Source of the DNA: an uncultured Bacteroidales bacterium
Lineage (GTDB): Bacteria > Bacteroidota > Bacteroidia > Bacteroidales > P3
Direction: 5' to 3'
Assembly: GCA_900319865.1 (NCBI GenBank)
Contig: ONQD01000013.1
Coordinates: 1 to 50,773, forward strand
Length of the DNA stretch: 50,773 bases
Shown here: positions 17,679 to 50,579 of the stretch, one piece after another
How the letters are laid out: every line of letters begins with the position of its first letter
How positions within the stretch are numbered: position 1 is the stretch's first letter
Position numbers and translations under genes: made by a program
The notes under the pieces: generated by a model
Databases searched by the model: none
The model's input: only the letters and a program-made list of their open reading frames with translations
Told to the model about the DNA's origin: nothing

Positions 17679-17832
17679 TACGTCTGCAACACATTCATTT
17701 GCCTCCTTCACCTCCAAATCACTTTCCAGCCCTCAAATGCCCGCAACACTAGATTCCAGCACCATTTACCCCACCTCCATCTCCCCATTTCGCTTCATCC
17801 ATCCGCCTTCCCGCTCCCACACTTCTTCACCT

Positions 17833-17865
17833 CATAATAAGCTCTTAGTAATTTCTTATTAACCT
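17833..17865. repeat. AT-rich element at composition switch 1 (related to 50350-50382)
   Basis: The segment reads CATAATAAG, 19 bases, AACCT. The same two blocks with the same 19-base spacing occur at 50350-50382, and 24 of 33 positions agree, most differences being transitions. Both sit exactly where the plus strand changes from C-rich to G-rich. Confidence 0.45.
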
Positions 17866-18360
17866 CTGCACTGAAGAAGAATTAAAGATGTGATGGATGA
17901 ATACTGAACTGCAAGCGGAGTTGGATAAAAAGGACACTGGGGACGGGGCAAAAGAGGATTGGATTTATGGCGCGGATGAAGTAACCGTAACTACTAATTG
18001 ATGGGCTGGCGGAAGGTTATTGAGCGGGATGAAAAGAGCTACGAAACCTGGCATCACACTGACTGCATCGTCTGGAGATCGAACTACGTTATTATCTGAA
18101 AGACATCTGTCATGCATCTATACTGCGGTTGATTACAGAGAGCAAATAAGTGGTAGCATGAAAGGTGCATCGCAATATGCCACTGCTGATTTACTCATAG
18201 GTATGAATGCTGCTACTGGATTATTATCATGCCTTAATGCGGCAAGAAAGGCCTTTGGTTCATCCCTTGATTGTAAGGATTGCCGTTTTCTATTGATGAC
18301 GGAATACAATCAGAAGAAGAAAAAATGCAAAAAAATATTTTATATATTAAAAAAATAGCG

Positions 18361-18368
18361 TATTTTTG
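18361..18368 (+). promoter_or_regulatory. TAnnTTTG promoter box of the nucleotide-sugar dehydrogenase gene
   Basis: TATTTTTG follows an A-rich stretch. It predicts a leader of about 70 nt and probably drives the 18.4-26.6 kb gene series. Confidence 0.65.
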
Positions 18369-18444
18369 CAAATTGGTTTTGCAGGTTGTACAATGCAATG
18401 ACCGACACTGGCATGATAATATACAAATAATATAATAAAATAAT

Positions 18445-19719
18445 ATGCAAGAAATTAAGATTGCCGTTATCGGATTAGGCTATGTAGGATTACCTTTGGC
18501 CAGACTGTTTTCCACCAAGTACAAAACTATTGGATACGACATGAACAAGGCCCGAGTTGACGCATTGATGGCAGGTCACGACGCCACTCTCGAGGTTAGC
18601 GACGAATTGTTGCAAGACGCCATTAACAATCACGGGTTTATTTGCTCGGCCAATATTGACGATATACGCCAGTGTAATTTCTATGTGGTTGCCGTTCCCA
18701 CGCCTGTGGACCGCAACAACAATCCAGACCTCACACCCCTTTACGGAGCCAGCGAGGTGGTGGGCAAAGTGATAAGCCGCGGCGACGTGGTAGTGTACGA
18801 GTCAACCGTCTATCCCGGTGTGACCGAGGACGAATGCCTTCCCGTGGTGGAAAAGGTGTCGGGATTGAAGTACAACAAAGACTTTTTTGCCGGTTACAGT
18901 CCCGAACGTATCAATCCCGGTGATAAAGTCCACACCGTAGAGAAAATCACCAAAATCACTTCCGGTTCAACACCCGAGATTGCCGACCTGGTAGACCAAG
19001 TATACTCGTCGGTTCTTCTCAACGGAACCCACAGAGCCTCCAGCATCAAGGTGGCAGAGGCCGCCAAGGTGATTGAAAACAGCCAGCGCGACATCAATAT
19101 CGCATTTGTCAACGAGCTGTCGAAGATTTTCAACCTGATGGGCATTGACACAAACGATGTGCTGGAAGCAGCCGGAACCAAATGGAACTTTATCAAGATG
19201 AACCCTGGACTGGTGGGCGGACACTGCATTTCGGTAGACCCCTACTATCTTGCACAATGCGCCCAACGGTTGGGATACAACCCCGAAATTATTCTTGCCG
19301 GACGCCGCATGAACGACGGCATGGGTGCCTATGTGGCCGACCAGACCATCAAGCTGATGCTGAAGAAAGGCATTCAAGTGCTGCACTCGAAAATCATCAT
19401 CATGGGATTCACCTTCAAGGAGAACTGCCCCGATGTGCGCAACACCCGCGTCATCGATATCTATCACGCCCTGCAGGAGTATAACGCCGACATCACGGTG
19501 TTCGACCCATGGGCATCGCCCGAGCGCGTGAAGCACGAATACGGCATTGATGTGGTGAACACACTGCCCAACGACAAGTACAGTGCCGCCATTATAGCCG
19601 TCGCCCACCGCCAGTTCCGCGAGATGGAAATAGACTTCGAAAAGCTGCTGGAGCCGAACCACGTAATCTACGATGTAAAAGCCATTATGCCCCGCAATTT
19701 GGTGGACGGCAGACTCTAA
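18445..19719 (+). CDS. UDP-N-acetyl-hexosamine 6-dehydrogenase (WbpA/WbpO/TviB-like)
   Basis: Protein of 424 residues of the UDP-glucose/GDP-mannose dehydrogenase family. The NAD motif GLGYVG is at residues 10-15, the catalytic Cys261 in GGHCISVDPYYL, and the C-terminal domain has GFTFKENCPDVRNT. The NPGLVGGHCISVDP variant is that of enzymes oxidising UDP-GlcNAc or UDP-GalNAc to the uronic acid, rather than UDP-glucose. With the WbpB-, WbpE- and WbpI-like genes after it, WbpA-type oxidation of UDP-GlcNAc to UDP-GlcNAcA is the most likely step. It is the first gene of the cluster and has its own promoter. Confidence 0.9.
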   Translation: MQEIKIAVIGLGYVGLPLARLFSTKYKTIGYDMNKARVDALMAGHDATLEVSDELLQDAINNHGFICSANIDDIRQCNFYVVAVPTPVDRNNNPDLTPLYGASEVVGKVISRGDVVVYESTVYPGVTEDECLPVVEKVSGLKYNKDFFAGYSPERINPGDKVHTVEKITKITSGSTPEIADLVDQVYSSVLLNGTHRASSIKVAEAAKVIENSQRDINIAFVNELSKIFNLMGIDTNDVLEAAGTKWNFIKMNPGLVGGHCISVDPYYLAQCAQRLGYNPEIILAGRRMNDGMGAYVADQTIKLMLKKGIQVLHSKIIIMGFTFKENCPDVRNTRVIDIYHALQEYNADITVFDPWASPERVKHEYGIDVVNTLPNDKYSAAIIAVAHRQFREMEIDFEKLLEPNHVIYDVKAIMPRNLVDGRL

Positions 19720-19773
19720 CCGCTTATTCTGAGGCAACAAATAACACTAAACTAAAAAAAGACACTGAAATAC

Positions 19774-20754
19774 ATGGCAAATTTTGCACTGATAGGCGCG
19801 GCCGGCTATATCGCCCCGCGACACCTCAAGGCCATAGCCGATACCGGCAACACCCTGTTGGCCGCCTACGACAAGTTCGACAGCGTGGGTAGACTGGACA
19901 GTTTCTTCCCCGATTGCTCATTCTTTACCGAACAGGAACAGTTTGACCGCTTCTGCTCTAAACAGCAGCATAGCGACAACCCGCTGAACTGGGTATCGAT
20001 CTGCACCCCGAACTATACACATGATGCCTTTATCAGGTACGGTCTGCGTCTGGGATGCGACGTGATATGCGAGAAGCCCTTGGTGCTGAACCCCTACAAC
20101 ATCGACAACTTGATAGAGATGGAGCAAGAAACCGGGCACAAGGCATACACTATATTGCAGCTGAGGTTGCACGACTCGATTGTGGCATTGAAGAAGAAGG
20201 TGGATGAGGGTCCGAAGGATAAGATTTACGACGTGGACCTCACCTATATCACATCTCGGGGCAAGTGGTACTATTCCTCGTGGAAAGGCGATGTGCACAA
20301 AAGTGGAGGCGTGGCCACCAATATCGGTGTACACTTTTACGATATGCTGCAATGGATATTCGGCCCGGTGCAGCAGAACGTGGTGCACGTCATGTCGCAC
20401 GACCGAGTGGCCGGGTATTTGGAATTGAAACAAGCCCGTGTGCGCTACTTTCTGAGCATCAATGCCGACTGTTTGCCTCCCAATGCAGTGCAAGGCGAAA
20501 AACGCACTTACCGCACCATCATGATTGACGGCGACGAGTTTGAATTCAGCCAAGGGTTTACGGAGCTGCACACCAAGAGTTACCAAGAGATTCTGGCCGG
20601 ACGTGGATTCCGCATCAGTGAAGCGCGCAACTGCATACAGATAGTAAGCGACATCCGTCATTCCACCCCTGTAGGACTGAAAGGCGACTACCATCCGCTG
20701 GCCAAAATGCCGCTTTCAGCCCACCCGTTTGGATGGACAGACATGAAGTATTAA
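19774..20754 (+). CDS. Gfo/Idh/MocA family UDP-N-acetylglucosaminuronate 3-dehydrogenase (WbpB/WlbA-like)
   Basis: NAD-dependent oxidoreductase of 326 residues. An N-terminal Rossmann start (ALIGAAGYIAPRHL) is followed by the EKPLVLNP motif near residue 105, whose Lys is the usual catalytic residue of the family. The sequence GAAGYIAPRHLKAI is characteristic of WbpB/WlbA, which oxidise C3 of UDP-GlcNAcA to give the 3-keto sugar used by the next enzyme. The partner aminotransferase gene starts 33 bp downstream, matching the usual WbpB-WbpE pairing in which 2-oxoglutarate recycles the cofactor. Confidence 0.88.
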   Translation: MANFALIGAAGYIAPRHLKAIADTGNTLLAAYDKFDSVGRLDSFFPDCSFFTEQEQFDRFCSKQQHSDNPLNWVSICTPNYTHDAFIRYGLRLGCDVICEKPLVLNPYNIDNLIEMEQETGHKAYTILQLRLHDSIVALKKKVDEGPKDKIYDVDLTYITSRGKWYYSSWKGDVHKSGGVATNIGVHFYDMLQWIFGPVQQNVVHVMSHDRVAGYLELKQARVRYFLSINADCLPPNAVQGEKRTYRTIMIDGDEFEFSQGFTELHTKSYQEILAGRGFRISEARNCIQIVSDIRHSTPVGLKGDYHPLAKMPLSAHPFGWTDMKY

Positions 20755-20787
20755 AAAAAATCATTAACGCAATAAAGGGAACAGACA

Positions 20788-21993
20788 ATGGAGTTTAGAG
20801 ACTTGAAGAAACAATATCAGGTACTGAAAACCGACATGGACAAGGCTATGACCGATGTGGCCACCTCGGGAGCATTCATCATGGGCGAACCCGTGAAGAT
20901 GCTGGAACAGGAACTGGCCAACTATGTCGGTGTGAAACATTGTATCAGCTGTGCCAACGGCACCGATGCCCTCACCCTTGCACTGAAGACTCTGGGCATC
21001 GGGAAAGGCGATGTGGTGTTTGTGCCCGATTTCACTTTCTTCTCCACTGCCGAGGTGGTGGCATTGGAAGGTGCCCTGCCCGTGTTTGTGGATGTTGACC
21101 CAGACACGTTCAATATGGACCCCTCCAGCCTGGCCGAGGCCATAGAATGTGTGCGCGATGACATGTCGTTGAGAGCGAAAGCAGTCATAGCGGTGGACCT
21201 TTTCGGTATGCCTGCCAATTACGCTGAGATACGCAAGGTGGCCAAACAGCACGACCTCTACATCATAGAAGACGGAGCCCAAGGGTTTGGCGGTTGGACG
21301 GACTACGATGTCAGCAACAGCGGGGTTGTCACTCCCTGCCCCAAGGGCAAAAGAGCCTGCAGTTTCGGTGATATCAGCACCACATCTTTCTTCCCTGCAA
21401 AACCTTTGGGATGCTATGGCGACGGCGGTGCAGTGTTTACCAATAACGACGAATGGGCAGACTATATCCGTTCGCTTCGGGTTCACGGCAAGGGAAGCAA
21501 CAAATACGACAATGTGCGTATTGGACTCAACTCCCGTCTCGACACCATGCAGGCCGCCATTCTGAGGGTGAAGCTGAAAGCCTTTATAGACCACGAACTG
21601 GCCGATGTGAACCGTGCGGCTGAATATTACACCCAACTTATCACCGGAACACTGCGATTCAGCAAGAAGGAAATACAAATCACAGCTCCCACACTGCCCA
21701 AAGGATATGGCAGCAGTTGGGCACAATACACCGTACGGCTCAGTGTTCCGTCAGGAAACGGGACATTCAACCGCGAAGCCTTACAGGCAAAGATGAAGGC
21801 CAAAGGCATACCCACCATGGTGTATTACCCCATACCCATGAGCTACCAGACAGCATTCCGGGGGTTGCGCCGCTTTGTGCTGACCCCACATGCCGAAAAC
21901 CTGTCGAAGAGTGTGCTCTCGCTGCCAATGCACCCCTATATCACACGCGAGGAAATACGCTACGTGGTTGAGTCGCTGGTGAACAGTATTTAA
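20788..21993 (+). CDS. DegT/DnrJ/EryC1 family sugar aminotransferase (WbpE/WlbC-like)
   Basis: PLP-dependent enzyme of 401 residues, glutamate as likely amino donor. The PLP lysine is Lys205 in FFPAKPLG, preceded by the EDGAQGFG block and followed by GDGGAVFT. It is expected to put an amino group on C3 of the 3-keto-UDP-GlcNAcA made by the WbpB-like enzyme, giving UDP-GlcNAc3NA. It starts 33 bp after that gene. At about 400 residues it is longer than P. aeruginosa WbpE (about 360); a 20-residue insert near residues 172-190 (YDVSNSG to KGKRACS) accounts for part of this. The next step, N-acetylation by WbpD, has no recognisable gene here. Confidence 0.9.
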   Translation: MEFRDLKKQYQVLKTDMDKAMTDVATSGAFIMGEPVKMLEQELANYVGVKHCISCANGTDALTLALKTLGIGKGDVVFVPDFTFFSTAEVVALEGALPVFVDVDPDTFNMDPSSLAEAIECVRDDMSLRAKAVIAVDLFGMPANYAEIRKVAKQHDLYIIEDGAQGFGGWTDYDVSNSGVVTPCPKGKRACSFGDISTTSFFPAKPLGCYGDGGAVFTNNDEWADYIRSLRVHGKGSNKYDNVRIGLNSRLDTMQAAILRVKLKAFIDHELADVNRAAEYYTQLITGTLRFSKKEIQITAPTLPKGYGSSWAQYTVRLSVPSGNGTFNREALQAKMKAKGIPTMVYYPIPMSYQTAFRGLRRFVLTPHAENLSKSVLSLPMHPYITREEIRYVVESLVNSI

Positions 21994-22010
21994 CACACAC
22001 ATGTCACACC

Positions 22011-22502
22011 ATGGAAAGAAGAATATGCCACAACGATGGAATTTCTCCAGTATGGGACGGCAGAATATTCTTCAAGAAATGTATGTCGCTAAGCGAAAAG
22101 TGCTATTCATTCCCCATTGCCCTAAACGTTGAACGACCGACAAGGGAGGGTATGCCCATTATCGGCGTTTCCCATCCGGACGGGAAGTCGAATGATTTTG
22201 CCCACAGGGACCACCGCGAACAGCATTTGAACAGGACTCAGGTTCATCATATATCCGACCACATGGTGGCCACAAAAGCCATCACCTCAGTCGATGAAGC
22301 ACCGAGTATGATAGTACAATGTGTATTCGACGAGGCGGTATCTGAAGCCACAGCGAAGCTACACCGACTCAACCCCGACCAAAGCAAAAACTGGAGGCAT
22401 AACGGGAAAGCACAAGTGCATCGCAACCACCGAGCCATTTCCCAGCTATTCGTAGGCAGAGTTTTAAATACATCTTTACAGAACAACAAGCAAACAACAT
22501 GA
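22011..22502 (+). CDS. Unrecognised reading frame in the position expected for a WbpD acetyltransferase
   Basis: The gap of 574 bp between the aminotransferase and epimerase genes holds one open frame of 163 codons beginning MERRICHNDGIS. It has no signal peptide, no membrane segment and no hexapeptide (left-handed beta-helix) repeats, so it is not a WbpD-type acetyltransferase. It is rich in His, Asn and Arg. Arginines are often AGA/AGG here, whereas neighbours mostly use CGC/CGT, which argues against a long-resident gene. It could be a small new gene, a decayed insert or chance. The spacing is close to the length of a wbpD gene, but I see no remnant of one. Confidence 0.3.
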   Translation: MERRICHNDGISPVWDGRIFFKKCMSLSEKCYSFPIALNVERPTREGMPIIGVSHPDGKSNDFAHRDHREQHLNRTQVHHISDHMVATKAITSVDEAPSMIVQCVFDEAVSEATAKLHRLNPDQSKNWRHNGKAQVHRNHRAISQLFVGRVLNTSLQNNKQTT

Positions 22503-22567
22503 TACCGATGGATGGGACAAGCCTTTTGCCCATTCCACCGGTTCAAAATCATAAGGAGACATAATAG

Positions 22568-23734
22568 ATGAAATTACTCACCGTCATCGGGGCCCGTCCC
22601 CAAATCATCAAAGCCGCCGCCATCAGCCGAGCCATAGCAAATGGTTTTTCCGACCAAGTGGAAGAGCGTATCCTGCATACCGGACAACATTATGATGCCA
22701 ATATGTCACAGGTCTTCTTCGACGAACTGGGCATTCCCCAGCCCCACTACAATCTTAAGGTGGGTTCCGGCCGTCATGGTGCACAGACAGCCAAGATGAT
22801 TTCAGGTATAGAGGAGGTGTTAATGACCAGCGCTTTCGATGGCGTAATACTCTATGGCGACACCAATTCCACATTAGCCGGAGCTGTGGCTGCATCGAAA
22901 CTGCATGTGCCCGTTTATCATATCGAGGCAGGACTGCGTTCTTTCAACATGACTATGCCCGAGGAAATCAACCGCATTGTGTGCGACCAACTCTCCAATA
23001 TCTGTTTCGCCCCCACCCAAACGGCTGTCAATAACCTTAGAAACGAAGGTTTCATGGAAAGCCACGCCACTTTTGCCGGAGGCCGTCACCGAAAGGTTTG
23101 CAACTGCGGTGATGTTATGTATGACAACAGCATGTATTTTGCCACACTGGCCAATCAGCGGTGCCATATAATCAATAAATTAGGGCTACAGCCCAACAAC
23201 TACATTCTTGCCACAATACATCGTGACAACAATACCGACAACCCAGAGCGGTTATTGGCCATCATGACTGCCCTGAACGATATAGCACAACAGGACAACA
23301 TCCAGGTTGTGTTGCCGTTGCATCCTCGCACTCGAAAAATGCTCCAGAATACAACGCTTCCATTCAGCATAGCGGGTTTGGAATCGTCTGCCACTAACAG
23401 CATCAACAACGACAATACTTGCGCCATACGAATCATTCCTCCTGCCAGTTTCTTCGAAATCAACATGCTTGAACAATACGCAAAAGTGGTGATGACCGAC
23501 AGTGGCGGCGTGCAGAAAGAAGCATTCTTCTTTGAAAAACCTTGCGTAATTCTACGGCCTGAAACCGAATGGGTTGAGATTGTGGAACATGGGGCTGGCC
23601 TTATTGCCGATGCCAACTACGACCGCATTGTCGCCTCATATCGACAGCTGGTTGACCACCCTGTGCATTTCCCCCATCTCTTCGGCAATGGACATGCGGC
23701 AGAAAAAATAATTGAAACCATTATAGAATATTAA
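22568..23734 (+). CDS. Non-hydrolysing UDP-N-acetylglucosamine 2-epimerase family (WbpI/WecB-like)
   Basis: Cytosolic enzyme of 388 residues that inverts C2. The family hallmarks are present: GARPQIIKAAA at the N-terminus, LHTGQHYD, GDTNSTLAG, HIEAGLRSF, EEINR and the C-terminal MTDSGGVQKEAFFF block. GARPQIIKAA, where WecB has GTRPEAIKMA, resembles the WbpI/WlbD branch acting on UDP-GlcNAc3NAcA, in line with the neighbouring genes. A usable purine-rich ribosome site (AAGGAG) lies 9-14 bp before the ATG, uncommon in this window. The next gene starts 4 bp after the stop. Confidence 0.92.
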   Translation: MKLLTVIGARPQIIKAAAISRAIANGFSDQVEERILHTGQHYDANMSQVFFDELGIPQPHYNLKVGSGRHGAQTAKMISGIEEVLMTSAFDGVILYGDTNSTLAGAVAASKLHVPVYHIEAGLRSFNMTMPEEINRIVCDQLSNICFAPTQTAVNNLRNEGFMESHATFAGGRHRKVCNCGDVMYDNSMYFATLANQRCHIINKLGLQPNNYILATIHRDNNTDNPERLLAIMTALNDIAQQDNIQVVLPLHPRTRKMLQNTTLPFSIAGLESSATNSINNDNTCAIRIIPPASFFEINMLEQYAKVVMTDSGGVQKEAFFFEKPCVILRPETEWVEIVEHGAGLIADANYDRIVASYRQLVDHPVHFPHLFGNGHAAEKIIETIIEY

Positions 23735-23738
23735 AGCA

Positions 23739-26594: not shown

Positions 26595-26611
26595 CACTCG
26601 TTACATACGCA

Positions 26612-26648
26612 AAAGAGCGGGACACCTGTTGAAGGCATCCCGCTCTTT
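26612..26648. terminator. Bidirectional terminator between convergent genes
   Basis: AAAGAGCGGGA (26612-26622) pairs perfectly with TCCCGCTCTTT (26638-26648). The flanking A and T runs provide a U tract on both strands, serving the dehydrogenase gene (plus) and the rubrerythrin gene (minus). Confidence 0.9.
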
Positions 26649-26666
26649 CTATTACGAAGAGTCAGA

Positions 26667-27209
26667 TTATTTCTTGAAATAACGGTTGTAGAGACCCTCC
26701 AAAGCCTTTCCGTGGCGAGCCTCGTCGCGAGCCATTTCATGAACAGTGTCGTGAATTGCATCCAAATTCAGCGCCTTGGCACGTTTGGCTAAGTCAGTCT
26801 TGCCAGCGGTGGCACCATACTCTGCGTCAATGCGCATCTTCAGATTCTCAGCAGTGCTGTCGGTAAGCACCTCACCCAGCAGTTCTGCAAACTTGGCAGC
26901 GTGCTCTGCTTCCTCAAAAGCAGCCTTCTCCCAATACAAACCCACTTCGGGATAGCCCTCGCGGTGTGCCACACGGGCCATGGCAAGATACATTCCCACT
27001 TCTTTGCATTCGCCTTCAAAATTGGCACGCAAATCCATCATAATGTCTTCGGGAGCACCCTTGGCAACTCCCACAATATGCTCTGCAGCCCAAGTTTTTA
27101 CATCTTCTACTACTTCCTGCATTTGCTTGCCGCAAATAGGACACTTTTCGGGCATTTCATCGCCTTCATAAACATAGCCACAAACGGGGCAGATAAACTT
27201 TTTGCTCAT
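26667..27209 (-). CDS. Reverse-type rubrerythrin (N-terminal rubredoxin plus ferritin-like di-iron domain)
   Basis: Protein of 180 residues. The rubredoxin domain is at the N-terminus, with iron-binding Cys7/10 (CPVC) and Cys23/26 (CPIC). The four-helix ferritin-like domain (about residues 40-175) has Glu ligands in [18 protein letters not shown] and ARDEARHG. This order is reversed from classical rubrerythrin, so it belongs to the revRbr group, which reduces hydrogen peroxide with electrons from NAD(P)H-linked donors in anaerobes. It points to an anaerobic lifestyle. It is a single gene on the minus strand, divergent from the outer membrane barrel gene; no clear -7 box was found before it. 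Confidence 0.95.
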
Positions 27210-33860: not shown

Positions 33861-33962
33861 AGCTGGTTCATTCCAGTACCATCGCCCACTTTCCCAAACT
33901 CGCACTCCGCTTCGTCCACAATCCACTACCAACCCACTCCTCCCAAAAGACATCTTCACCCC

Positions 33963-34012
33963 AGAGCTTAACAAAAGCTTTTGAAGAGGTTGATACAAGC
34001 TGAATTAGTAAG
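33963..34012. repeat. AT-rich element at composition switch 2 (related to the one at 50.37 kb)
   Basis: It contains the 12-base palindrome CAAAAGCTTTTG (33972-33983), then a TGATAC...AGCTG block. The element at 50367-50397 has the same AAGCTTTTG followed by TGATATAGTTG. It sits where the plus strand changes from C-rich to G-rich. Similarity to the 17.85 kb element is weaker. Confidence 0.35.
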
Positions 34013-34159
34013 GATGTTGCAAAAAAGAGAAATGGAACCGGAAGAATGCCGACAAAGATGATGAAAAGTAAACCAAACGGAAAAACAGGGGAAGTGGAAG
34101 GGCATAAACAGGATTAACCGTCAGGTTAGAAATGATATTCTTTTTTTGTTTGATTTTGT

Positions 34160-34192
34160 GCGCAGGTCTGTCTTATCAGGCCTGTGCTTTTT
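34160..34192 (+). terminator. Rho-independent terminator about 300 bp after ccsBA
   Basis: GCGCAGG (34160-34166) pairs with CCTGTGC (34181-34187), with one G-U, followed by five T. It ends either a long ccsBA 3' untranslated region or a separate small RNA. Confidence 0.75.
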
Positions 34193-35638: not shown

Positions 35639-36568
35639 TTATTGTGATTGTTTATTCAATTGGTCGATATAGGGGATAAGGTAGTTGGCGAAAGCCACGT
35701 TGGCTTTGTGGCCGGGTTTATATATTGTGAAGTGACCATTGAGGGGCATGCCCACAAGCCGGATGTCGCCCACAAAGTCGAGCAGTTTGTGGCGGGCGGG
35801 TTCGTTGGGATAGTAGGGGTCGGTGGTGTTGAGCACACCGTCGTGGACACGGAACTGTGCGGGGTCCTTGTGGAAAGTGCGGCCGAGGCGTCGGAGCTGA
35901 CGGGGGGAGAGTTCTTTATTGACAAAGACGAGGGCGTTGTCGAGACTGCCACCCTTGATGAGGTTGAGATGAAGCAGAGGCTCGATTTCGTGGAGGAAGA
36001 CAAACGTGCGGCAGGGAGCGATGCCCGAAGCATATTGGGAGAAATTGTCGAGATTGGCGGTTTGTTTACCGATGACACTGTTGGGGAAATCGACGGTGCA
36101 GTGGACTGAGAAGGTGTCGGCAGGGTCGATATGATAGACCGAGCCGGTAGGGGCAAACTCGAAATCGACAGGTTCGGGGAAGGAGAATACACGCCTTTCG
36201 GCTTCCTGCTGCACTGTGCCCACACGGGCCAGTTGCAACATCCAAGGACGGGCAGAGCCGTCGAGGATGGGTACTTCGCCACCATCAAGTTCAATAAGGG
36301 CGTTGTCGACCTGACTGCCATGGAGTGCCGACATAAGGTGCTCGATAGTGGCAACGGTGTGTCGGCCAGTGCCGATGGTGGTACCACGCGAGGTTTCGCT
36401 CACCTGGGTGGCGAGAGCCGGAAGGGTGACGATGTTGAAACGGTCGGTTCGGCGGAAAGCGATGCCGAAGTCGGCAGGAGCCGGACGGACCGTGACCGTG
36501 ACCGTGCGCCCAGTGTGAAGGCCCAGGCCGGTGAGGCGAAAATCCTTGCTTATAGTGGTCTGTTTCAT
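35639..36568 (-). CDS. lpxC: UDP-3-O-acyl-N-acetylglucosamine deacetylase, stand-alone form
   Basis: Zinc deacetylase for the committed step of lipid A synthesis. Zinc ligands His77 (TIEHLMSAL), His260 and Asp264 (HKLLDFVGD) and the general acid His287 (PGHKAN) are all present. The protein ends at residue 309, shortly after the last conserved block, as in E. coli (305 residues). In Bacteroidota LpxC is normally fused at its C-terminus to FabZ (about 460 residues in all). Here no FabZ domain follows; lpxA begins 10 bp later. Its ATG overlaps the upstream gene's stop by 4 bases (ATGA), so the two are translationally coupled. Confidence 0.95.
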   Translation of the reverse strand: MKQTTISKDFRLTGLGLHTGRTVTVTVRPAPADFGIAFRRTDRFNIVTLPALATQVSETSRGTTIGTGRHTVATIEHLMSALHGSQVDNALIELDGGEVPILDGSARPWMLQLARVGTVQQEAERRVFSFPEPVDFEFAPTGSVYHIDPADTFSVHCTVDFPNSVIGKQTANLDNFSQYASGIAPCRTFVFLHEIEPLLHLNLIKGGSLDNALVFVNKELSPRQLRRLGRTFHKDPAQFRVHDGVLNTTDPYYPNEPARHKLLDFVGDIRLVGMPLNGHFTIYKPGHKANVAFANYLIPYIDQLNKQSQ

Positions 36569-39961: not shown

Positions 39962-39969
39962 TATCTTTG
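39962..39969 (+). promoter_or_regulatory. TAnnTTTG promoter box of bamD
   Basis: TATCTTTG lies only six bases before the bamD ATG. A transcript starting 5-8 nt after the box would begin at or inside the start codon region. Confidence 0.7.
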
Positions 39970-39975
39970 CAGGCT

Positions 39976-40779: not shown

Positions 40780-40827
40780 AAAGATAGCGCTAATCATTAT
40801 TCACACATAGATAATTATCATTGTACA

Positions 40828-41205: not shown

Positions 41206-41332
41206 GACAAGGCGTTGATACTGCCAGTCTATTCTTCTCAACAACCGCTTCCCAACCTGTTGCAGCAACAATTCTGATGCACCAGCCGTGGGCTAAAGTA
41301 TGGGGATTAATCATTAATGGTACTGTATCGAG

Positions 41333-42532: not shown

Positions 42533-42689
42533 CATAGCAATCTACACATACCTGCTTTCCTACCCATCTGGTGCTTTGATACTTCATAACCCATTATAAT
42601 ACCTGCGCTCATCCCATACTCCCGGCCACAATATGGCATCAACACGTCAACAAACATAAATAGTAACAATATAATAAAACAATTTGACC

Positions 42690-43664
42690 ATGAAGAAGCT
42701 CTCTATCGCAGCCATTGTACTATCCGTCCTGGCCATCGTGGGGGAAATCCTGATTTGTGCCAGTTCTAGGGAAGACAGCGAGGAAGTGCTTCAACGCGCC
42801 ATCTCAAACAACTACCGCATCTACTCACCAATTCTGCCCGACACAATGTCGTTTGCCGGTGAGAAGGTCCCGCTTTCCACCTACTACGTCCACGAAGGTC
42901 TCGACCTCGAGGTGATAACCAATATGTACCGACACTCCTCCACCATGCTCTACTTCAAACGGGCCAACCGCTACTTCCCCATTATCGAACCCATACTGAA
43001 GAAGAACGGTATCCCCGCCGACTTCAAATACCTCTGCGTGATAGAAAGCGGACTGACCAATGCCACCTCTCCTGCCAAAGCGCAAGGGTTCTGGCAATTC
43101 ATACCCAGCACTGGTGCCAACTACGGCCTCACTGTAAACGACGAAATAGACATGCGCAACAATCTCACCGCCTCGACCGAAGCTGCCTGCAAATACATCC
43201 GCTCCCTCTACAACAAGTTCCACAGCTGGACCGCCGCTGCTGCCGCATACAACTGTGGCGAGAACGGCTTGGCTCGCCGCATCAGCAAACAAAGCACCGA
43301 CAACTACTACGACCTTTGGCTCAACTCCGAAACAAGCCGTTATGTGTACCGTATCCTCGCCATGAAACTCATCATGCAGAATCCTCAAAAATACGGTTTC
43401 CACCTCCGCCAGTGCGACCTCTATCCCCCCATCCCCACACGGGCTGCCACCCTCTCAGGCCAAAATGTGGACCTCTATGAGTTTGCCCGCTCCAATGGCA
43501 CAAGTTACAAAATGCTGCGCATGTTGAATCCTTGGATTCAAACCGATGTTTTGAAGAATAAGTCCAACCAAAAATACATGGTGCAACTCCCCGTCAAGAA
43601 TGGCACTGAAAGTAAAACAATCGCGCCCGGACGTCGCGAAACTAGTTTCATTACATCCATTTAG
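42690..43664 (+). CDS. Lytic transglycosylase (MltD-like, SLT domain)
   Basis: Periplasmic murein-cleaving enzyme of 324 residues. An N-terminal hydrophobic segment (residues 4-25) acts as signal or anchor. The SLT domain has the catalytic Glu119 in CVIESGLTN, then GFWQFIPSTGANYGL and AAAAYNCGENGL. A degenerate LysM-like region follows near residues 260-310 (VDLYEFARSNGTSYKML). The start ATG 42690 is preferred over a TTG two codons upstream. Its TAG stop is in the same frame as uvrA, which starts 12 bp later. Confidence 0.9.
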   Translation: MKKLSIAAIVLSVLAIVGEILICASSREDSEEVLQRAISNNYRIYSPILPDTMSFAGEKVPLSTYYVHEGLDLEVITNMYRHSSTMLYFKRANRYFPIIEPILKKNGIPADFKYLCVIESGLTNATSPAKAQGFWQFIPSTGANYGLTVNDEIDMRNNLTASTEAACKYIRSLYNKFHSWTAAAAAYNCGENGLARRISKQSTDNYYDLWLNSETSRYVYRILAMKLIMQNPQKYGFHLRQCDLYPPIPTRAATLSGQNVDLYEFARSNGTSYKMLRMLNPWIQTDVLKNKSNQKYMVQLPVKNGTESKTIAPGRRETSFITSI

Positions 43665-43676
43665 CTCTATATAGTT

Positions 43677-46535
43677 TTGGAAGACAATATTGAAATATTA
43701 GGTGCCCGCGAGCACAACTTGCAGAATGTGGACCTCGACATTCCCCGCAACCAGTTTGTTGTTTTCACCGGTCTCAGCGGCAGCGGCAAATCCAGTCTTG
43801 CCTTCGACACCATCCACGCCGAAGGTCAACGCCGCTATATGGAAACATTCTCGGCCTATGCACGCCATTTCATAGGCAACATCGAACGTCCCGATGTGGA
43901 CAGCATCACCGGGCTCAGTCCCGTCATCTCTATCGAACAGAAAACCACCAACAAGAATCCCCGTTCCACCGTCGGCACAGTGACCGAGATTTACGACTTC
44001 ATCCGATTGCTTTATGCCCGCATCGGCATAGCCTACTCTCACATCAGCGGGGAACGAATGGTGAAATATACCGAGGAACAGATTCTCAACCTCATCGTCG
44101 AACGCTATGGCGGCCGCGACATCATGGTGCTTGCCCCTCTGGTGAAAGCACGTAAAGGTCACTACCGCGAACTCTTTTCCCAGGTGGCCAAGAAAGGCTT
44201 TCTCCGGGTACGTGTGGACGGCGAAATCCGCGAACTCACCTACAACATGCAGGTCGACCGCTACAAAACCCACGACATAGAGTTGGTGATAGACCGCGTG
44301 CGTGTAGGCACCAACCTCGACCGTCTCAAAGAAGCCGTGCGCACCGCTTTCAAACAAGGCAAAGGGGTACTCATGATTCTCGAAAACCTACCCCACAACC
44401 CCATTCCCACCCCTCAGCCCAAGCCGGCTTTCTTCAGCCGTCTACTCATGGACCCCACCACTGGCCATTCCTATCCCGAGCCAGAGCCCAACACTTTCTC
44501 ATTCAACTCTCCCTATGGCGCATGCCCCAAATGCAACGGATTGGGACAAATAGCGCAAATCGACATTTCCAAGCTCATCCCCGACCCTAAGAAAAGCATC
44601 CGCGAAGGGGCATTCGAAGTTTTGGGCAAATACAGCAGCACCAACTACTTCTATCGCAAACTGGAACGCCTGGGGCAATACTATCACTACACCATCGACG
44701 ACCCCGTCGAGTCATTCTCCGACGACGCCATGAACACCATTCTCTATGGCACCAGCGACTTCACCGGAATGGAGGATGCCTACGAAATGAATCATGGCAA
44801 CAATTTCCAAGGCATTGTCAACTACATCATGCAGATGGCCTCCGACGAGAACTCCGCCGCCCTGCAGAAATGGGCCTCCAGCTTCATGAACACGGTCCCC
44901 TGTCCCGAATGCCACGGCTACCGGCTCAAACCCGAAAGCCTGGCCTTCAAGGTGGACGGCATGCATATCGGTGAAATGTCCGAACTGGATTTGACCGAAC
45001 TCTACGACCGTTTGCTCCATCTCGAAGACCGGCTCGAGCCCCAGCAGAAACAGGTGGCTCACGAAATACTCCGCGAAATACTCACCCGCACAAAATTCAT
45101 TATTGACGTGGGCGTTGGATACCTCTCGCTCAACCGCAGCAGCAGCAGCCTCTCCGGCGGCGAGTCGCAACGCATTCGCCTCGCCACACAAATCGGTGCC
45201 CGTCTGGTCAATGTGCTCTATATCCTTGACGAACCCAGCATCGGCCTCCACCAACGCGACAACCGCCGCCTCATTAACTCCCTCAAGGAGCTCCGCGATC
45301 TCGGCAACAGCGTGATTGTGGTAGAGCACGACCGCGACATGATGCTCAGTTCCGACTATCTTGTCGACATCGGCCCCGGTGCCGGAGTTCATGGCGGCAA
45401 AGTCATCTTTCAGGGCAACCACAAACAACTCGTCTCGTCCAAGAAACATACGCTCACCCTCGACTATCTCAAACGCATCAAGGACATCCCCATCCCCCAG
45501 CGCCGCCCCATGCAGGACTGCGACCATATCGTCATCACCGGTGCCACCGGCAACAACCTCAAGGATGTAACTTTCTCCCTTCCCCTGCGACGCTTTGTAT
45601 GCATAACCGGCGTTAGCGGCAGTGGGAAATCCAGCCTCATCAACGAAACACTCCACACCATACTCAACCGCCATTTCTTCCATGCCCTTAAAGAGCCCTT
45701 GCCCTATAAAAGCATTACAGGTATTGAGCATATCGACAAAGTCATTGAAATCGACCAGTCGCCCATCGGCCGCACTCCGCGCAGCAATCCCGCCACCTAT
45801 GTTGGCGTCTTCGACGACATCCGCTCTCTCTTCACCCAGCTTCCCAGTGCCCGCATCCGTGGCTACAAACCCGGCCGCTTCTCTTTCAATGTGAGTGGAG
45901 GCCGCTGCGAACACTGCAAAGGAGCCGGAGTACGCACCATTGAGATGAACTTCCTTCCCGATGTGTATGTCAACTGCGAAGTGTGCAACGGCAAACGCTA
46001 CAACCGCGAAACTCTGGAAATTCGCTACAAAGGCAAGAGCATTGCCGACGTGCTCGACATGACCATCAACGAAGCCGTCTCCTTCTTTGAATCTTACCCC
46101 AAAATCTACCGCAAGCTGAAAACCCTCCAAGAGGTAGGCCTTGGCTATATCACCCTGGGCCAGCAATCCACCACCCTCAGTGGAGGTGAAGCACAGCGCA
46201 TCAAACTGGCAACCGAACTGGCCCGACCCGAAACCGGCAACACCCTCTACATCCTCGACGAACCTACCACCGGCCTCCATTTCGAGGACATCCGCGTACT
46301 GCTCGACGTGCTGCAACGCCTGGTCGACCGCGGCAACAGCATCCTGGTCATCGAACATAATATGGATGTCATCAAAGTGGCCGACTGGATTATCGACATG
46401 GGGCCCGAAGGAGGTCGCCGTGGAGGCCGCATCATGTTCGAAGGCACACCCGAGGACCTCGCCCTCCAAACCGACAACTACACCGGTCAGTTTCTGCGCG
46501 ACGAATTGGAACAAACCCTCAAATCCTCGCAGTAG
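43677..46535 (+). CDS. uvrA: Excinuclease ABC subunit A
   Basis: Damage-recognition ATPase of nucleotide excision repair, 952 residues. Two ABC modules are complete: Walker [10 protein letters not shown] at 32-40 and a second GVSGSGKSS near 650; signatures [12 protein letters not shown] and [12 protein letters not shown]. Zinc modules include [16 protein letters not shown], and CEHCKGAG with CEVCNG. The start must be TTG 43677: the family N-terminus ([13 protein letters not shown]) begins right there, and the only in-frame codons before it are four after the preceding gene's stop. A rare start codon in this window. DUF819 gene starts 12 bp downstream. Confidence 0.97.
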
Positions 46536-46547
46536 ACTCCTACTCCC

Positions 46548-47702
46548 ATGATACCCTACCTGCTATACCTCTTTGGCATCCCAGCCCTCGTCATGCTTCT
46601 GGCCCGACGTTGGACTTGGATAGACAAGGTAAGCCCCATGGCCATTCTCTATGTCATAGGCCTCTTGGTAGCCAACCTCACCCCCTGGATTCATAGCCCC
46701 GGCCTGCTCGAAACCAACAACCTCATTGGCAATATCTGTATTCCTCTGTCCATCCCCCTGATGCTCATCTCGTGCAGTCTCACCAACTGGTCGTCGGGCA
46801 CAACCCTCAAAGCCTGTCTCAGCGGACTGCTGGCCATCATCGTTGTCACAGTGGCCGGATTCTTCCTTTTCCGTGGACATAGCTCCCCGCTCCAGTTTGC
46901 CCAAGTCTGCGCCGTCTCCATCGGCATCTACACCGGCGGCATACCCAACATGGGCGCCATTGCCCGGGGCGTGGGCATGGACAACGCCACCTATCTCTAC
47001 ATCACCTCCTACGACCTCATCGTCACCGGCCTCTACCTCGTCTTCGTCATCTGCTTTGGCAAACCCGTCTTCCGCCACCTTCTTCCCCCTCCTTCCAATC
47101 CCTCGTCCCATTCCCAACCCGGCCCCTCCTCCCAGCAGTCTGTCCCCACGCGTTCATCCCAACGCTTCCTCCCCATCCTCCTGGCTGTCATCATCGCTGT
47201 CGTGTCCTACCTAACCTCAACTCTCTTCCCCGACTCAATTTCCACCCCCATGCTCATCCTCATTCTCACAACCCTCTCCATTGCAGCCTCTTTCCTCCCC
47301 TTCGTCCGACGTGTCAATCAACATGCCGACAGCCAAAACCAGCAACCCCTCGCCTTCAACGTTGGCCTCTACTTCGTCTATCTCTTCTGCTTCTCCATAG
47401 CCAACGCCTGCGACATCAGCCAAATGGACCTCACCGGAAGCCTCAACATCCTTTGGTACATACTCTTTGTCATCTTCGGCTCCCTCATCCTCCAAATACT
47501 TTTTTCCCGCATACTCCACATCGACAGCGACACCACCCTGGTCACCTCCGTCACATTCATCAACTCCCCGCCTTTTGTCCCCTTGGTGGCAGCCCTGCTC
47601 AACAATAAAAACCTCATCGTAACCGGCATCACCATCGGCCTTCTGGGCTATCTCGTCGGCAACTATCTGGGTTTAGGACTATTCTTCATTCTGGCACCCT
47701 AA
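46548..47702 (+). CDS. DUF819 family integral membrane protein
   Basis: Protein of 384 residues with about ten to eleven membrane helices. Family landmarks are a GGIPNMGAIARG motif with small residues between helices and a similar PPFVPLVAALLNN block near the C-terminus, suggesting two inverted halves as in secondary transporters. A Ser/Pro/Gln-rich cytoplasmic loop lies near residues 180-205, in a very C-rich stretch of DNA (47101-47220: 58 C, 16 G). Function unknown; transport is inferred only from fold. It starts 12 bp after uvrA. Confidence 0.82.
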   Translation: MIPYLLYLFGIPALVMLLARRWTWIDKVSPMAILYVIGLLVANLTPWIHSPGLLETNNLIGNICIPLSIPLMLISCSLTNWSSGTTLKACLSGLLAIIVVTVAGFFLFRGHSSPLQFAQVCAVSIGIYTGGIPNMGAIARGVGMDNATYLYITSYDLIVTGLYLVFVICFGKPVFRHLLPPPSNPSSHSQPGPSSQQSVPTRSSQRFLPILLAVIIAVVSYLTSTLFPDSISTPMLILILTTLSIAASFLPFVRRVNQHADSQNQQPLAFNVGLYFVYLFCFSIANACDISQMDLTGSLNILWYILFVIFGSLILQILFSRILHIDSDTTLVTSVTFINSPPFVPLVAALLNNKNLIVTGITIGLLGYLVGNYLGLGLFFILAP

Positions 47703-47801
47703 CCTTTCTGCCATCCCCCCCAAAAAAGCCCAACAACTATTAACAGATATTAATTTCCCGCGCCGCGCTCTTTTTTGTTCCATCATGTCATTTTTTTTTC
47801 G

Positions 47802-47809
47802 TATTTTTG
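47802..47809 (+). promoter_or_regulatory. TAnnTTTG promoter box of the C10 protease gene
   Basis: TATTTTTG follows a T-rich stretch with TTTG near 47774 as a possible -33 box. The predicted leader is about 35 nt. Confidence 0.65.
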
Positions 47810-47847
47810 CCTTTTGGAAAGAAAATATTAATAAACAGTATATCACA

Positions 47848-49281
47848 ATGAAAAATCTGAGAACCACACTATTATCACTTAGTGTTATTGTCGTTTCCCT
47901 TATGTTTGGCACCGCAAAAGCCGACAACATCGACCTCCAAACTGCAAAAGAGGTGGGTGCTTACTATTTTAGCGTAGCCACCGGGGCCAAAGCTCCCATC
48001 ACCGCCGACAAGCTGAAACTTGTTGAGCAAATGGACAACCCCACACTTTGCATCCCTGCCCTCTATTCTTTCAATATCTCGGGAAATGGCTTCGTGATTG
48101 TTTCCGCCTCCAACTGTGTGGAGCCCGTCCTGGCCTATTCGCCCGTAGGCAGCCTTGACCCCGAAAACGTCAATCCCGCCTGCCGCGCCATGCTCAACAG
48201 CTATGTCGAAATCATCAGCGTGCTTCAGAACGAAGAGGCCGCCCAAACTGCCACCTACAAACAACGTTGGGACGAACTCCTCAACCACACTTTCACCTGC
48301 AACCCCGAAAGCAAAGCCATCCTAATCCAGACCAAATGGGGTCAAGATTATCCCTACAACACCTTCTGCCCTGTTATTCGCGACACCGTCTGCCCCACCG
48401 GCTGCGTTGCCACTGCCATGGCCTCCATCATCCGCTACTGGCAATACCCCCTCAAAGGCGCAGGCACCGCTGCCACCAGCTGGCGCAATCAAACTCTCCG
48501 CTACTATTTCACTCACGACTCCAATAAATTCATCTACGACAGCATGCCCCTCCGCCCCGCACGCTACAACTGTGAATGGAACATCCGCCGCGCCCTCGGC
48601 AAACTCATGTATGCCTGCGGTGTCACCGTCCGTATGGGTTGGGATATCGGCGGCAGCGGCACCCAAAGCACCTATGTGCCCAATGCCCTTACCACTTATT
48701 TCCGCTACTCCCCTGATGCAAAACACATAACCCGTGGTTCTTATACCGACGCTCAATGGGACAAAATGCTCCACTCTGAACTCGACGACAACCGCCGCCC
48801 CATTTACTACAGTGCTTTCGACCCCACAAGCTCCGGTGCTGATGCAGGTCACGCATTCGTCATTGCAGGCTCCTCCTCTTCCGACGAACACAAATACTAC
48901 ATCCGCTGGGGTTGGGACGGCAATAGCGACGGCTTCTTCACCCTCACCCCTGCAAGTCAAATCGAAAGAGCCGGTGGATACAAATTCTATGATAGACACG
49001 CTATGGTCTACAAAATCCATCCCAAAACCGAAGGCATAGAGGACAACACCTCCTACAGCATCGCTCCCTCTTACCCCAATCCCGCCACCGACTACATGAT
49101 GATTCCCTCCGACCTCCCACTCAACGCCTACCTCACCATCTACAGCATGGACGGCAAAATCGTTGACCGTCACATCATCCCCGGCGGCGCTAAAGAGTAT
49201 CGTCTCGACCTCCAAAACTACGCTCCCGGCATGTACGTCTACCGCCTCAACGGCAACGCCTATAAATTCACCGTACAATAA
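47848..49281 (+). CDS. Secreted C10 family cysteine protease (streptopain/PrtT-like) with type IX secretion tail
   Basis: Protein of 477 residues. A signal peptide (1-25) is followed by a Spi-type inhibitory pro-domain (about 26-150) and the C10 catalytic domain. The latter has Trp164 (WGQDYPYN), the nucleophile Cys186 in PTGCVATAMAS, His335 in AGHAFVIAG and WGWDG at 354-358. The last 70 residues (YPNPATDY onward, ending FTVQ) form a type A Por secretion sorting domain, so the enzyme is exported by the type IX system and anchored at or released from the surface. The start ATG 47848 is fixed by the signal peptide; upstream codons are in the promoter region. Confidence 0.92.
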   Translation: MKNLRTTLLSLSVIVVSLMFGTAKADNIDLQTAKEVGAYYFSVATGAKAPITADKLKLVEQMDNPTLCIPALYSFNISGNGFVIVSASNCVEPVLAYSPVGSLDPENVNPACRAMLNSYVEIISVLQNEEAAQTATYKQRWDELLNHTFTCNPESKAILIQTKWGQDYPYNTFCPVIRDTVCPTGCVATAMASIIRYWQYPLKGAGTAATSWRNQTLRYYFTHDSNKFIYDSMPLRPARYNCEWNIRRALGKLMYACGVTVRMGWDIGGSGTQSTYVPNALTTYFRYSPDAKHITRGSYTDAQWDKMLHSELDDNRRPIYYSAFDPTSSGADAGHAFVIAGSSSSDEHKYYIRWGWDGNSDGFFTLTPASQIERAGGYKFYDRHAMVYKIHPKTEGIEDNTSYSIAPSYPNPATDYMMIPSDLPLNAYLTIYSMDGKIVDRHIIPGGAKEYRLDLQNYAPGMYVYRLNGNAYKFTVQ

Positions 49282-49308
49282 TAACCGGTTTCACACCACA
49301 TACAATAT

Positions 49309-49349
49309 CCCCCCGATGTCAACAATCCGAATGTCGGGGGGCTATTTAT
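49309..49349 (+). terminator. Terminator after the C10 protease gene
   Basis: CCCCCCGA (49309-49316) pairs with TCGGGGGG (49334-49341), followed by a T-rich but broken run. Confidence 0.7.
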
Positions 49350-49436
49350 TAAAAAACATCCATCCTCGCCACCCTGCCCGCTCCCAACTAACATTTCCTT
49401 TCGTGCATCACTACTAAAACAAAAAACAACCACACA

Positions 49437-50117
49437 ATGAAAAAAGCCTTAACAATACTCATTCTCAGCCTCGTGTCTGCCACTTGCCTGCTGCAGGCAC
49501 AGTCCATCTCGGCAGCCGACAGTGCCGTATTCAACAAACTACTGGCTTCCAACCAAAAATACCACTCTTTGAAAACCATTTTCCGCCACGAACTCATCAA
49601 AAAGAACACCTCCCAGATGCGCTTCGGCACCCTCTACTACAAGCAAGTTTCGCCCAACAAAAAAGGCGACATCGAAGCCCTCATCTCCATGCTTTACGAC
49701 ACCCCAAAAGGTGAATACTACATCATCAACAAAACCAATCTCTACAACGGCATCGATGGGCACAAACTCAATTTCAGCTACCGCTTTGTCCCCCTCATGA
49801 AACTACTGGGCAATGCCGTGGCCTGGGCCATGAACGGCGACATCTACAGCATCTGCAGCAACCTCCAAACCGACTACACCCTCACCTCCGACGCCAACCA
49901 CCACATCGTTGCCCTCTCCGTGAAAAAAGGCAAAAACAAAGGCATCACCCGCATGCTTATGAAATACAGCAAGAAAACTGGCCTTATCGAATATCTCGAA
50001 ATCGAGGAGAAACTCGGCATTACACACAAATACAGCATGGGTCTGGACAACAAAGGCACTTTCCACCAGCCCCAAATCAACACCACTATCAACGCCTCGG
50101 TTTTCACCCTCAACTAA
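49437..50117 (+). CDS. LolA-like outer membrane lipoprotein carrier family protein
   Basis: Protein of 226 residues with a signal peptide (about residues 1-22, ending LLQAQ). The mature part is a succession of beta strands with an early amphipathic helix, and the middle GTLYYKQVSPNKKGDIEALISMLYD and the end INTTINASVFTLN resemble Bacteroidota LolA-family proteins. LolA ferries lipoproteins across the periplasm. The match is of the remote type, so a specialised paralogue is possible. It is a separate unit, between two terminators. Confidence 0.7.
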   Translation: MKKALTILILSLVSATCLLQAQSISAADSAVFNKLLASNQKYHSLKTIFRHELIKKNTSQMRFGTLYYKQVSPNKKGDIEALISMLYDTPKGEYYIINKTNLYNGIDGHKLNFSYRFVPLMKLLGNAVAWAMNGDIYSICSNLQTDYTLTSDANHHIVALSVKKGKNKGITRMLMKYSKKTGLIEYLEIEEKLGITHKYSMGLDNKGTFHQPQINTTINASVFTLN

Positions 50118-50144
50118 CCGAGTGCCCCAACCCCTTACATTAAC

Positions 50145-50188
50145 GCCCTGCCTCAGCCATTCGCTTGCCGAGGCAGGGCATTTGTTTT
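50145..50188 (+). terminator. Rho-independent terminator after the LolA-like gene
   Basis: GCCCTGCCTC (50145-50154) pairs perfectly with GAGGCAGGGC (50170-50179), followed by a T-rich run. Confidence 0.92.
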
Positions 50189-50349
50189 TCCACCATTTTC
50201 CATCCTCATTCCCTCATTACTCCAGTTGGGAATCAGTTTCATCAACACTCCCGGCATTATTTGACAAGCCAATCAGTTTAACCAGCAAAAATCTGTCAAG
50301 CGATTTCAGGAAAACACACACCCATTCCATCCTCGCTTCCTCATAAGCA

Positions 50350-50382
50350 CATAATAAGTTTCTATTAAGCTTTTGTCAACCT
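50350..50382. repeat. AT-rich element at composition switch 3 (related to 17833-17865)
   Basis: CATAATAAG, 19 bases, AACCT, the same blocks and spacing as at 17833-17865. It also contains AAGCTTTTG (50367-50375), shared with the 33.97 kb element. It marks the C-rich to G-rich change. Confidence 0.45.
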
Positions 50383-50482
50383 ACCTGATATAGTTGTCTT
50401 GATTTAGTCGTGAGGTAATGCTGAGCAGCAAGTGAAGCCGTATCAATCCTAGAAGGAAAATGGGAAAAGAACTGATTGAAAC

Positions 50483-50579
50483 GGGGCTGTGGGGCGTGGT
50501 TATTTGGGTTGTTGGTGGGTGCTGCGATGCGTATTGATGGGGTGGGGAAAAGCAAGGCGGGGTACGTTTTTTGGGGGGG
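50483..50579 (+). other. Cluster of eight G-runs with G-quadruplex potential
   Basis: G-runs of 3-7 bases start at 50483, 50491, 50506, 50517, 50539, 50544, 50559 and 50573 on the plus strand. Two sets of four are possible. They lie upstream of the promoter box at 50666. Confidence 0.4.

What the first reader, a model, noticed from the sequence alone, without database searches (positions are those of the whole stretch)
17700..50520. Saw-tooth strand composition: three abrupt C-rich to G-rich switches about 16 kb apart
On the plus strand, hand counts are: 17701-17820, 58 C/9 G against 17881-18000, 14 C/38 G; 33861-33960, 44 C/9 G against 34021-34120, 13 C/28 G; 50221-50340, 36 C/17 G against 50401-50520, 13 C/44 G. 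Between switches the strand drifts back from G-rich or balanced to C-rich (35701-35820: 45 G/22 C; 47101-47220: 16 G/58 C). Each switch resembles a replication-origin skew reversal, but three in 33 kb cannot all be origins. The switches are at about 17.85, 33.97 and 50.38 kb. An alternative is C-enrichment toward the 3' ends of long transcription units; this explains the convergent 34 kb site but less well the 17.85 kb site, where genes on both sides point the same way.
Basis: partly seen in the sequence, partly recalled or inferred. Interest (0 to 1): 0.7.

Follow-up and report, generated by a model that had tools for sequence, protein, structure and literature searches.

The report
Repeated DNA sites flip strand composition
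A gut bacterium carries about a hundred copies of a small two-armed DNA element between its genes, and around each copy the two DNA strands differ in composition much as they do around a replication origin, which hints that some outward-running DNA process starts there.

Summary
The three switches are not odd gene ends. Each carries a copy of a dispersed intergenic element that I found described nowhere: two oppositely oriented ~56-nt arms built of ~11-nt phased units. The whole genome gave 123 arm matches, about 113 sites.

Of 49 elements with both flanks, 47 show a C-to-G jump (mean +0.25); 222 ordinary gaps average 0.005, the 32 convergent ones included. In DNA not used to build the motif, 11 of 11 agree. 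The effect is alike for convergent, co-directional and divergent neighbours, fades over ~8-10 kb, and adds to a gene-strand bias: R2 0.32 with strand, 0.35 with distance along the unit added, 0.49 with the element added. Orthologues in one congener lacking the element show no such pattern.

Congeners carry 11-nt arrays of other sequences; those tested show no consistent flip.

Best explanation: a protein-binding site from which DNA synthesis or unwinding runs outward both ways (auxiliary origin or restart site). Anatomy and association are shown; mechanism is inferred (0.4).

The parts
17809..17864 (+). Element 1, left arm (11-nt phased units), centre about 17866
   Evidence: R1 arm model 40.2 bits, E 9.3e-10
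17872..17925 (-). Element 1, right arm, weaker
   Evidence: R1 arm model 18.6 bits, E 0.005
33966..34019 (-). Element 2, right arm, centre about 33964; the facing left arm is not recognised by the model
   Evidence: R1 arm model 36.9 bits, E 9.9e-9
50326..50381 (+). Element 3, left arm, centre about 50383; the facing right arm is not recognised by the model
   Evidence: R1 arm model 37.0 bits, E 9.3e-9
17661..17840 (+). C-rich, G-poor tract left of element 1
   Evidence: 60-base counts C19/G9, C26/G5, C28/G3
17901..18080 (+). G-rich tract right of element 1
   Evidence: 60-base counts G21/C8, G20/C8, G17/C14
33861..33980 (+). C-rich tract left of element 2
   Evidence: 60-base counts C25/G8, C24/G4
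33981..34160 (+). G-rich tract right of element 2
   Evidence: 60-base counts G17/C5, G18/C7, G13/C6
50081..50380 (+). C-rich tract left of element 3
   Evidence: 60-base counts from C26/G6 to C18/G5
50381..50620 (+). G-rich tract right of element 3
   Evidence: 60-base counts G17/C10, G21/C7, G28/C5, G25/C8
17641..17672 (+). Hairpin (15-nt arms) between the last gene stop and element 1, terminator-like
   Evidence: inverted repeat I1
50142..50182 (+). Hairpin (16-nt arms, 88%) followed by T-rich DNA, before element 3, terminator-like
   Evidence: inverted repeat I2; T run read
18361..18368 (+). TATTTTTG, like the Bacteroidota -7 promoter box TAnnTTTG (recalled), ahead of the gene at 18445
   Evidence: read
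50666..50673 (+). TATATTTG, same recalled promoter box; suggests a + strand gene beyond the contig end, so the 50.38 kb site is probably not convergent
   Evidence: read

Best explanation
Each switch is a copy of a dispersed intergenic element made of two oppositely oriented arrays of ~11-nt phased, binding-site-like units. Inferred: an oligomeric DNA-binding protein assembles on it and triggers outward, bidirectional DNA unwinding or synthesis (an auxiliary origin, or a replication-restart site). The strand left exposed or copied in one way gathers a biased set of substitutions, so the plus strand becomes C/T-rich to the left and G/A-rich to the right, with an e-fold length of about 6-8 kb. 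The saw-tooth is the sum of neighbouring domains plus a separate gene-strand bias. Shown: the element, its place at the switches, independence from gene direction, additivity, decay. Inferred: protein, DNA synthesis, mutational cause.
For: Same polarity for 26 co-directional, 15 convergent and 8 divergent elements. 47 of 49 elements against 109 of 222 control gaps positive; held-out 11 of 11 against 22 of 54. 4-fold GC skew within 6 kb: + genes about -0.5 to -0.58 left and +0.03 to +0.10 right, - genes about 0 left and +0.44 to +0.51 right. Element coefficient 0.379; 1000 random placements in element-free gaps gave mean 0.019, maximum 0.128. G010 orthologues lack the effect (slope -0.11, p 0.12, against +0.41, p 4.5e-7; 77 genes). 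The polarity, right side G-rich, is that of a bacterial origin (established knowledge). Intercepts of the six longest contigs are small, -0.07 to +0.08, beside the element term. Genes within 10 kb point away from elements slightly more often, 386 against 333, p 0.052.
Against: No replication, binding or coverage data. No dose response between motif score and jump (rho 0.01). The right side is G- and A-rich, not the G- and T-rich pattern expected of cytosine deamination (recalled). DnaA is present and no DnaA-box clusters were found in the sampled part. Arrays in G010 have no flip (21 of 40 positive, mean 0.004), nor is the sign consistent at five arrays of two named relatives. Several 20-kb stretches have contig intercepts up to about 0.36 that the model does not explain.
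Confidence: 0.4

Rival explanations
1. Recombination hotspot: the element is a preferred break site; resection, strand invasion and repair synthesis over several kb on both sides cause strand-asymmetric substitution, and perhaps GC-biased conversion.
For: Outward repair synthesis gives the same polarity as an origin (reasoning). 4-fold GC is 0.72 within 1 kb of an element and falls to 0.59 at 15-25 kb. The motif differs between congeners, as fast-changing hotspot motifs do elsewhere.
Against: The GC trend is absent among 77 genes with G010 orthologues (rho 0.07, p 0.54), and stretches without an element have 0.643, so core/accessory content may cause it. SNP density between two strains shows no clear peak at elements.
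Confidence: 0.2
2. Selection for polar sequence: strand composition around the element guides a DNA translocase or nucleoid organiser, as KOPS and similar polar motifs do (recalled); the element is its loading or sorting site.
For: Phased arrays look like sites for an oligomeric protein. The skew includes purine against pyrimidine.
Against: It would need weak selection on thousands of synonymous sites; 4-fold sites reach -0.58. No enriched polar motif was looked for.
Confidence: 0.15
3. The element marks, but does not cause, older skew reversals: it survives or inserts preferentially where another process flips the skew.
For: No dose response with motif score. At threshold 0.3, 35 of 80 upward jumps have no family-1 element within 500 bp.
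Against: 29 of the 32 strongest jumps have the element, and G010 orthologues of the same genes lack the pattern.
Confidence: 0.13
4. Transcription: C-enrichment toward transcript 3' ends, or C-rich Rho-loading terminators, with the inverted arms as bidirectional terminators.
For: Coding strands are C-rich at 4-fold sites, more so with distance along a unit. Rho is present. Arms and tails are C-rich and G-poor. Convergent gaps are over-represented among element sites (15 elements for 47 gaps of 250 bp or more, against 26 for 159 co-directional).
Against: Convergent gaps without an element show no jump (0.005, n 32). Divergent elements flip alike. Distance along the unit adds 0.027 to R2, the element 0.166. 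16 of 67 genes running into an element have a terminator-like hairpin before it (0.8 expected from shuffles).
Confidence: 0.07

Closest known systems
E. coli oriC low-affinity DnaA arrays (PMC4285127, passages seen)
   Same: [quoted passage not shown] local origin-like polarity here. The unit TT(A/C)TT(A/C)A(C/G)C resembles the DnaA box TTATNCACA (box recalled, not tested for binding).
   Different: About 113 sites instead of one; last base of the unit is C, not A; congeners' arrays do not resemble DnaA boxes.
Multi-origin, DnaA-independent chromosome replication in cyanobacteria (PMC7198777, abstract and passages seen)
   Same: Bacterial chromosome with irregular skew and possibly many initiation sites.
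   Different: Here a defined repeated element sits at each local switch and dnaA is present; the passages seen describe no such element; replication was not measured here.
Saw-tooth replication skew domains of mammalian genomes (recalled; a related paper, PMC3320577, seen as a listing)
   Same: Abrupt upward jump, gradual decline to the next jump.
   Different: Bacterium, tens of kb instead of about a megabase, and a sequence element at the jump.
REP/BIME and similar dispersed bacterial intergenic repeats (recalled)
   Same: Many intergenic copies with inverted parts.
   Different: Arms are weakly complementary, 28.1 of 60 pairs against 22.9 in random DNA, no stable RNA fold in two of three window copies and a weak one in the third, 11-nt phased units, long skew domains.

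Membership tests
Bacterial oriC (DnaA type) | Cluster of DnaA boxes (TTATCCACA, recalled) | tested here: not met
   18 exact boxes in the sampled own genome, no three within 200 bp; the same for 127 relaxed boxes
Bacterial oriC (DnaA type) | GC skew turns from C-rich to G-rich at the site | tested here: met
   47 of 49 elements
Bacterial oriC (DnaA type) | Single site per chromosome | tested here: not met
   about 113 sites
Replication origin (any kind) | DNA synthesis starts there | not testable with these tools
   needs nascent-strand or read-depth data
REP/BIME-type repeat | Stable stem-loop | tested here: not met
   arms weakly complementary; fold z-scores 0.01, -1.79, 0.32 for the three window copies
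Bidirectional transcription terminator | Lies downstream of genes on at least one side | tested here: not met
   8 of 54 elements lie between divergent genes and flip alike
Rho-dependent terminator | C-rich, G-poor transcript before the end point | tested here: inconclusive
   tracts are C-rich and G-poor, Rho present, no transcript data
Iteron-type plasmid origin | Helically phased direct repeats | tested here: met
   conserved A at arm positions 21, 32, 43, 54
Iteron-type plasmid origin | Adjacent initiator (Rep) gene | not tested
   no search for Rep genes next to elements was made; Pfam scans covered 38 window frames only

The most novel reading that the evidence does not exclude
A Bacteroidales bacterium starts DNA synthesis at more than a hundred discrete, sequence-defined chromosomal sites, where a phased two-armed element loads a dedicated initiator, and the array sequence (so the initiator's specificity) is rewritten from species to species within the genus.
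Probability: 0.25. Interest if true: 0.97.

Novelty: categorically new. Interest (0 to 1): 0.8.

Why it matters
Bacterial skew is usually read as one origin and one terminus. Here a short repeated element sits at the centre of skew domains some 16 kb wide across a chromosome, whatever the direction of the genes. If outward DNA synthesis is the cause, this is a bacterium with many sequence-defined initiation sites; if recombination is, it is a bacterial parallel to fast-changing hotspot motifs. Either way the strand composition is a ready map of where to look, and the genus, whose species carry 11-nt arrays of other sequences, offers a comparison.

Tried and rejected
Rejected: RNA hairpin or long perfect inverted repeat as the cause; known RNA families (0 matches at gathering threshold in the window); tRNA genes; transcript ends as the cause; regular 16-kb spacing.

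Led nowhere or stayed ambiguous: 4-fold GC peak at elements, absent among 77 orthologue genes. Conspecific SNPs: 1003 in 33 kb aligned; within 4 kb right of an element A/G 54% and C/T 12% of 109, left A/G 30% and C/T 27% of 380; unpolarised, three loci, no clear density peak (one search was the same script and failed). Arm pattern in viral contigs: 0 exact matches. A first analysis by position in the unit suggested a transcript-distance gradient; most of it is the element effect. Gap class 'convergent' alone, without element, shows nothing.

Literature: nine searches (one search returned 0 papers). I saw listings only, except PMC7198777 (abstract, passages) and PMC4285127 (passages). No listing showed such an element; the library holds open-licence PMC papers only, so absence from print is not proven.

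Rows dropped: six contigs that came back all N (C1, C3, C4, C5, C18, C66) had made 12 false downward jumps at W 1000; they are left out from then on. Elements or genes without enough flank or too few 4-fold sites were left out by the rules. The element lists differ by threshold: 54 in 1.48 Mb (E < 1), 64 in 1.85 Mb (E < 0.05).

Full report
WHAT WAS CHECKED. The window is a whole contig (C32) of a 2.9-Mb, 84-contig genome. The nearest named relatives by UvrA are Bacteroidales metagenome genomes, several from ruminants, 87% at best. Window genes with Pfam matches are ordinary: Hsp90, sugar-nucleotide enzymes, LpxC, GMP synthase, UvrA, a C10 peptidase.

THE SWITCHES ARE GENOME-WIDE AND ONE-SIDED. 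In a first 1.48-Mb sample, 1-kb windows at threshold 0.4 gave 26 upward (C to G) jumps, all between genes; the 12 downward ones there came from contigs that are all N. In 1.85 Mb the figures are 32 up and 0 down at 0.4, and 80 up and 25 down at 0.3.

THE ELEMENT. Lining up the switch points showed a shared sequence. An iterated profile of one 56-nt arm has an 11-nt column pattern, units of the type TT(A/C)TT(A/C)A(C/G)C, with A at positions 21, 32, 43 and 54 in 57 to 59 of 59 arms. Two arms face each other about a centre of a few bases; often one arm is strong and the other decayed. 54 sites were found in the first sample, 53 between genes: 15 convergent, 14 ++, 12 --, 8 divergent and 5 at contig ends. 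The whole genome gave 123 arm matches, 113 sites after merging ten pairs that I count in the list; only 150 of 657 candidates were scored, so this may be low. Copies sit at 17866, 33964 and 50383 in the window.

ELEMENT, NOT TRANSCRIPT. Plus-strand skew around elements is about -0.13 to -0.16 from 0.5 to 4 kb on the left and about +0.07 to +0.13 from 0.5 to 8 kb on the right, near 0 by 10 kb, and alike in the three orientation classes. The ends of that profile are partly circular, since switches seeded the motif. So I tested 385 kb not used for it: 12 elements, 11 with both flanks, 11 positive, mean +0.238; controls 22 of 54 positive, mean -0.015. Over all data 47 of 49 elements are positive, mean +0.249, and 109 of 222 control gaps, mean 0.005. 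At 4-fold sites + genes average -0.58 within 4 kb left and +0.03 to +0.10 within 6 kb right; - genes about 0 left and +0.44 to +0.51 right; AT skew moves the same way. Over 1368 genes, strand alone gives R2 0.324, with unit distance 0.351, with the element instead 0.490, with all three 0.502; 1000 random placements gave at most 0.128 against the observed 0.379. In the window R2 rises from 0.526 to 0.707; genes in the first 10 kb are more G-rich than predicted. An element beyond the contig end would explain that; I cannot check it.

RELATIVES. The arm model hits 6 of 61 genomes at E 0.01, the own genome being one. G027 has four strong matches. The three contigs that carry them match G000 at about 96-97% over most of the aligned length (90-99% in single pieces), while its own GMP synthase is 94% identical in protein; I read them as stray conspecific DNA. 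G010's weak matches are other 11-nt arrays (11 of its 15 were looked at); G008 and G023 share one inverted 11-nt array. At a strict threshold, gaps hold lag-11 arrays: 38 in 379 kb of G010, 14 in 1.85 Mb of G000, 5 in 179 kb of near relatives, 0 in 191 kb of intermediate and 0 in 1.15 Mb of other Bacteroidota. At guaA in 30 genomes (29 congeners and the own one) there were 9 lag-11 windows, mostly of different sequence, none at lags 10, 12 or 13, but 4 each at lags 9 and 18. Base identity in gaps peaks at lags 11, 22 and 33, clearly in G010 and weakly in G000.

FLIPS ELSEWHERE. G010 shows no excess of upward jumps in 2-kb windows (10 up, 12 down at 0.25; with 1-kb windows 9 up, 4 down at 0.3). 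Its arrays do not flip (21 of 40, mean 0.004), and five arrays of two named relatives have mixed signs. The G008 and G023 loci show none within 1.4 kb. G010 orthologues lack the element-side effect. So arrays look like a trait of the genus, while the flip is shown for this species only. In G000 a second, truly palindromic family (20 loci) has a weak flip, about -0.04 left and +0.02 to +0.08 right between 0.5 and 4 kb, and 15 of 20 lag-11 arrays outside family 1 are positive, mean 0.105.

MECHANISM. Shown: the element, its place at switches, independence from gene direction, additivity with gene strand, decay over 6-8 kb. Inferred: an outward bidirectional DNA process. DnaA is encoded and one element lies about 1.2 kb from dnaA. 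Intercepts of the six longest contigs, -0.07 to +0.08, are small beside the element term, but short stretches reach -0.36 and +0.28. Origin firing and break repair with restart leave the same polarity and cannot be told apart here. Motif score does not predict the jump, which weakens a simple affinity model.

NOVELTY. Nine literature searches (listed in Tried and rejected) showed no description of this element. Multi-origin bacteria are known among cyanobacteria (PMC7198777, abstract and passages) and oppositely oriented low-affinity arrays in E. coli oriC (PMC4285127, passages). I rate the element together with its skew domains as categorically new, with moderate confidence in the mechanism.

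Noticed in passing
G010 loci L231-L250 (e.g. C10:9263-9313 and C10:5854-5938); guaA loci L265-L283; L028, L029: Other species of the genus carry intergenic 11-nt arrays of other sequences, e.g. CGGACCATCCT mostly five times and CCTAAGCATAT; CCTAAGC arrays lie in C-rich valleys on both sides.
   Followed up: partly
own genome, e.g. C42:77116, C53:14450, C34:225620 (20 loci in 1.85 Mb): A second dispersed family: a palindrome of about 110 bp with 11-nt units (TTTCAACGCTA type) and a central hairpin, with a weak skew flip; a related match lies in L031 at 6396-6496.
   Followed up: partly
G027 contigs C41, C16, C27: Contigs about 96-97% identical to the own genome inside a genome whose GMP synthase is 94% identical in protein: probable cross-binning.
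   Followed up: partly
own genome C40:78499-78551: An element lies about 1.2 kb from dnaA (gene about C40:79759-81207), with a local skew jump from -0.42 to +0.32 in 500-base windows.
   Followed up: no
own genome C43:34286-36490 (L001): Rho has a long open frame of 742 aa, against 415 model positions, so it carries extra sequence.
   Followed up: no
own genome C56 near 2791: A strong upward skew jump without the element falls at the start of a frame that reads like a Cas9 N-terminus (recognised by eye, no search).
   Followed up: no
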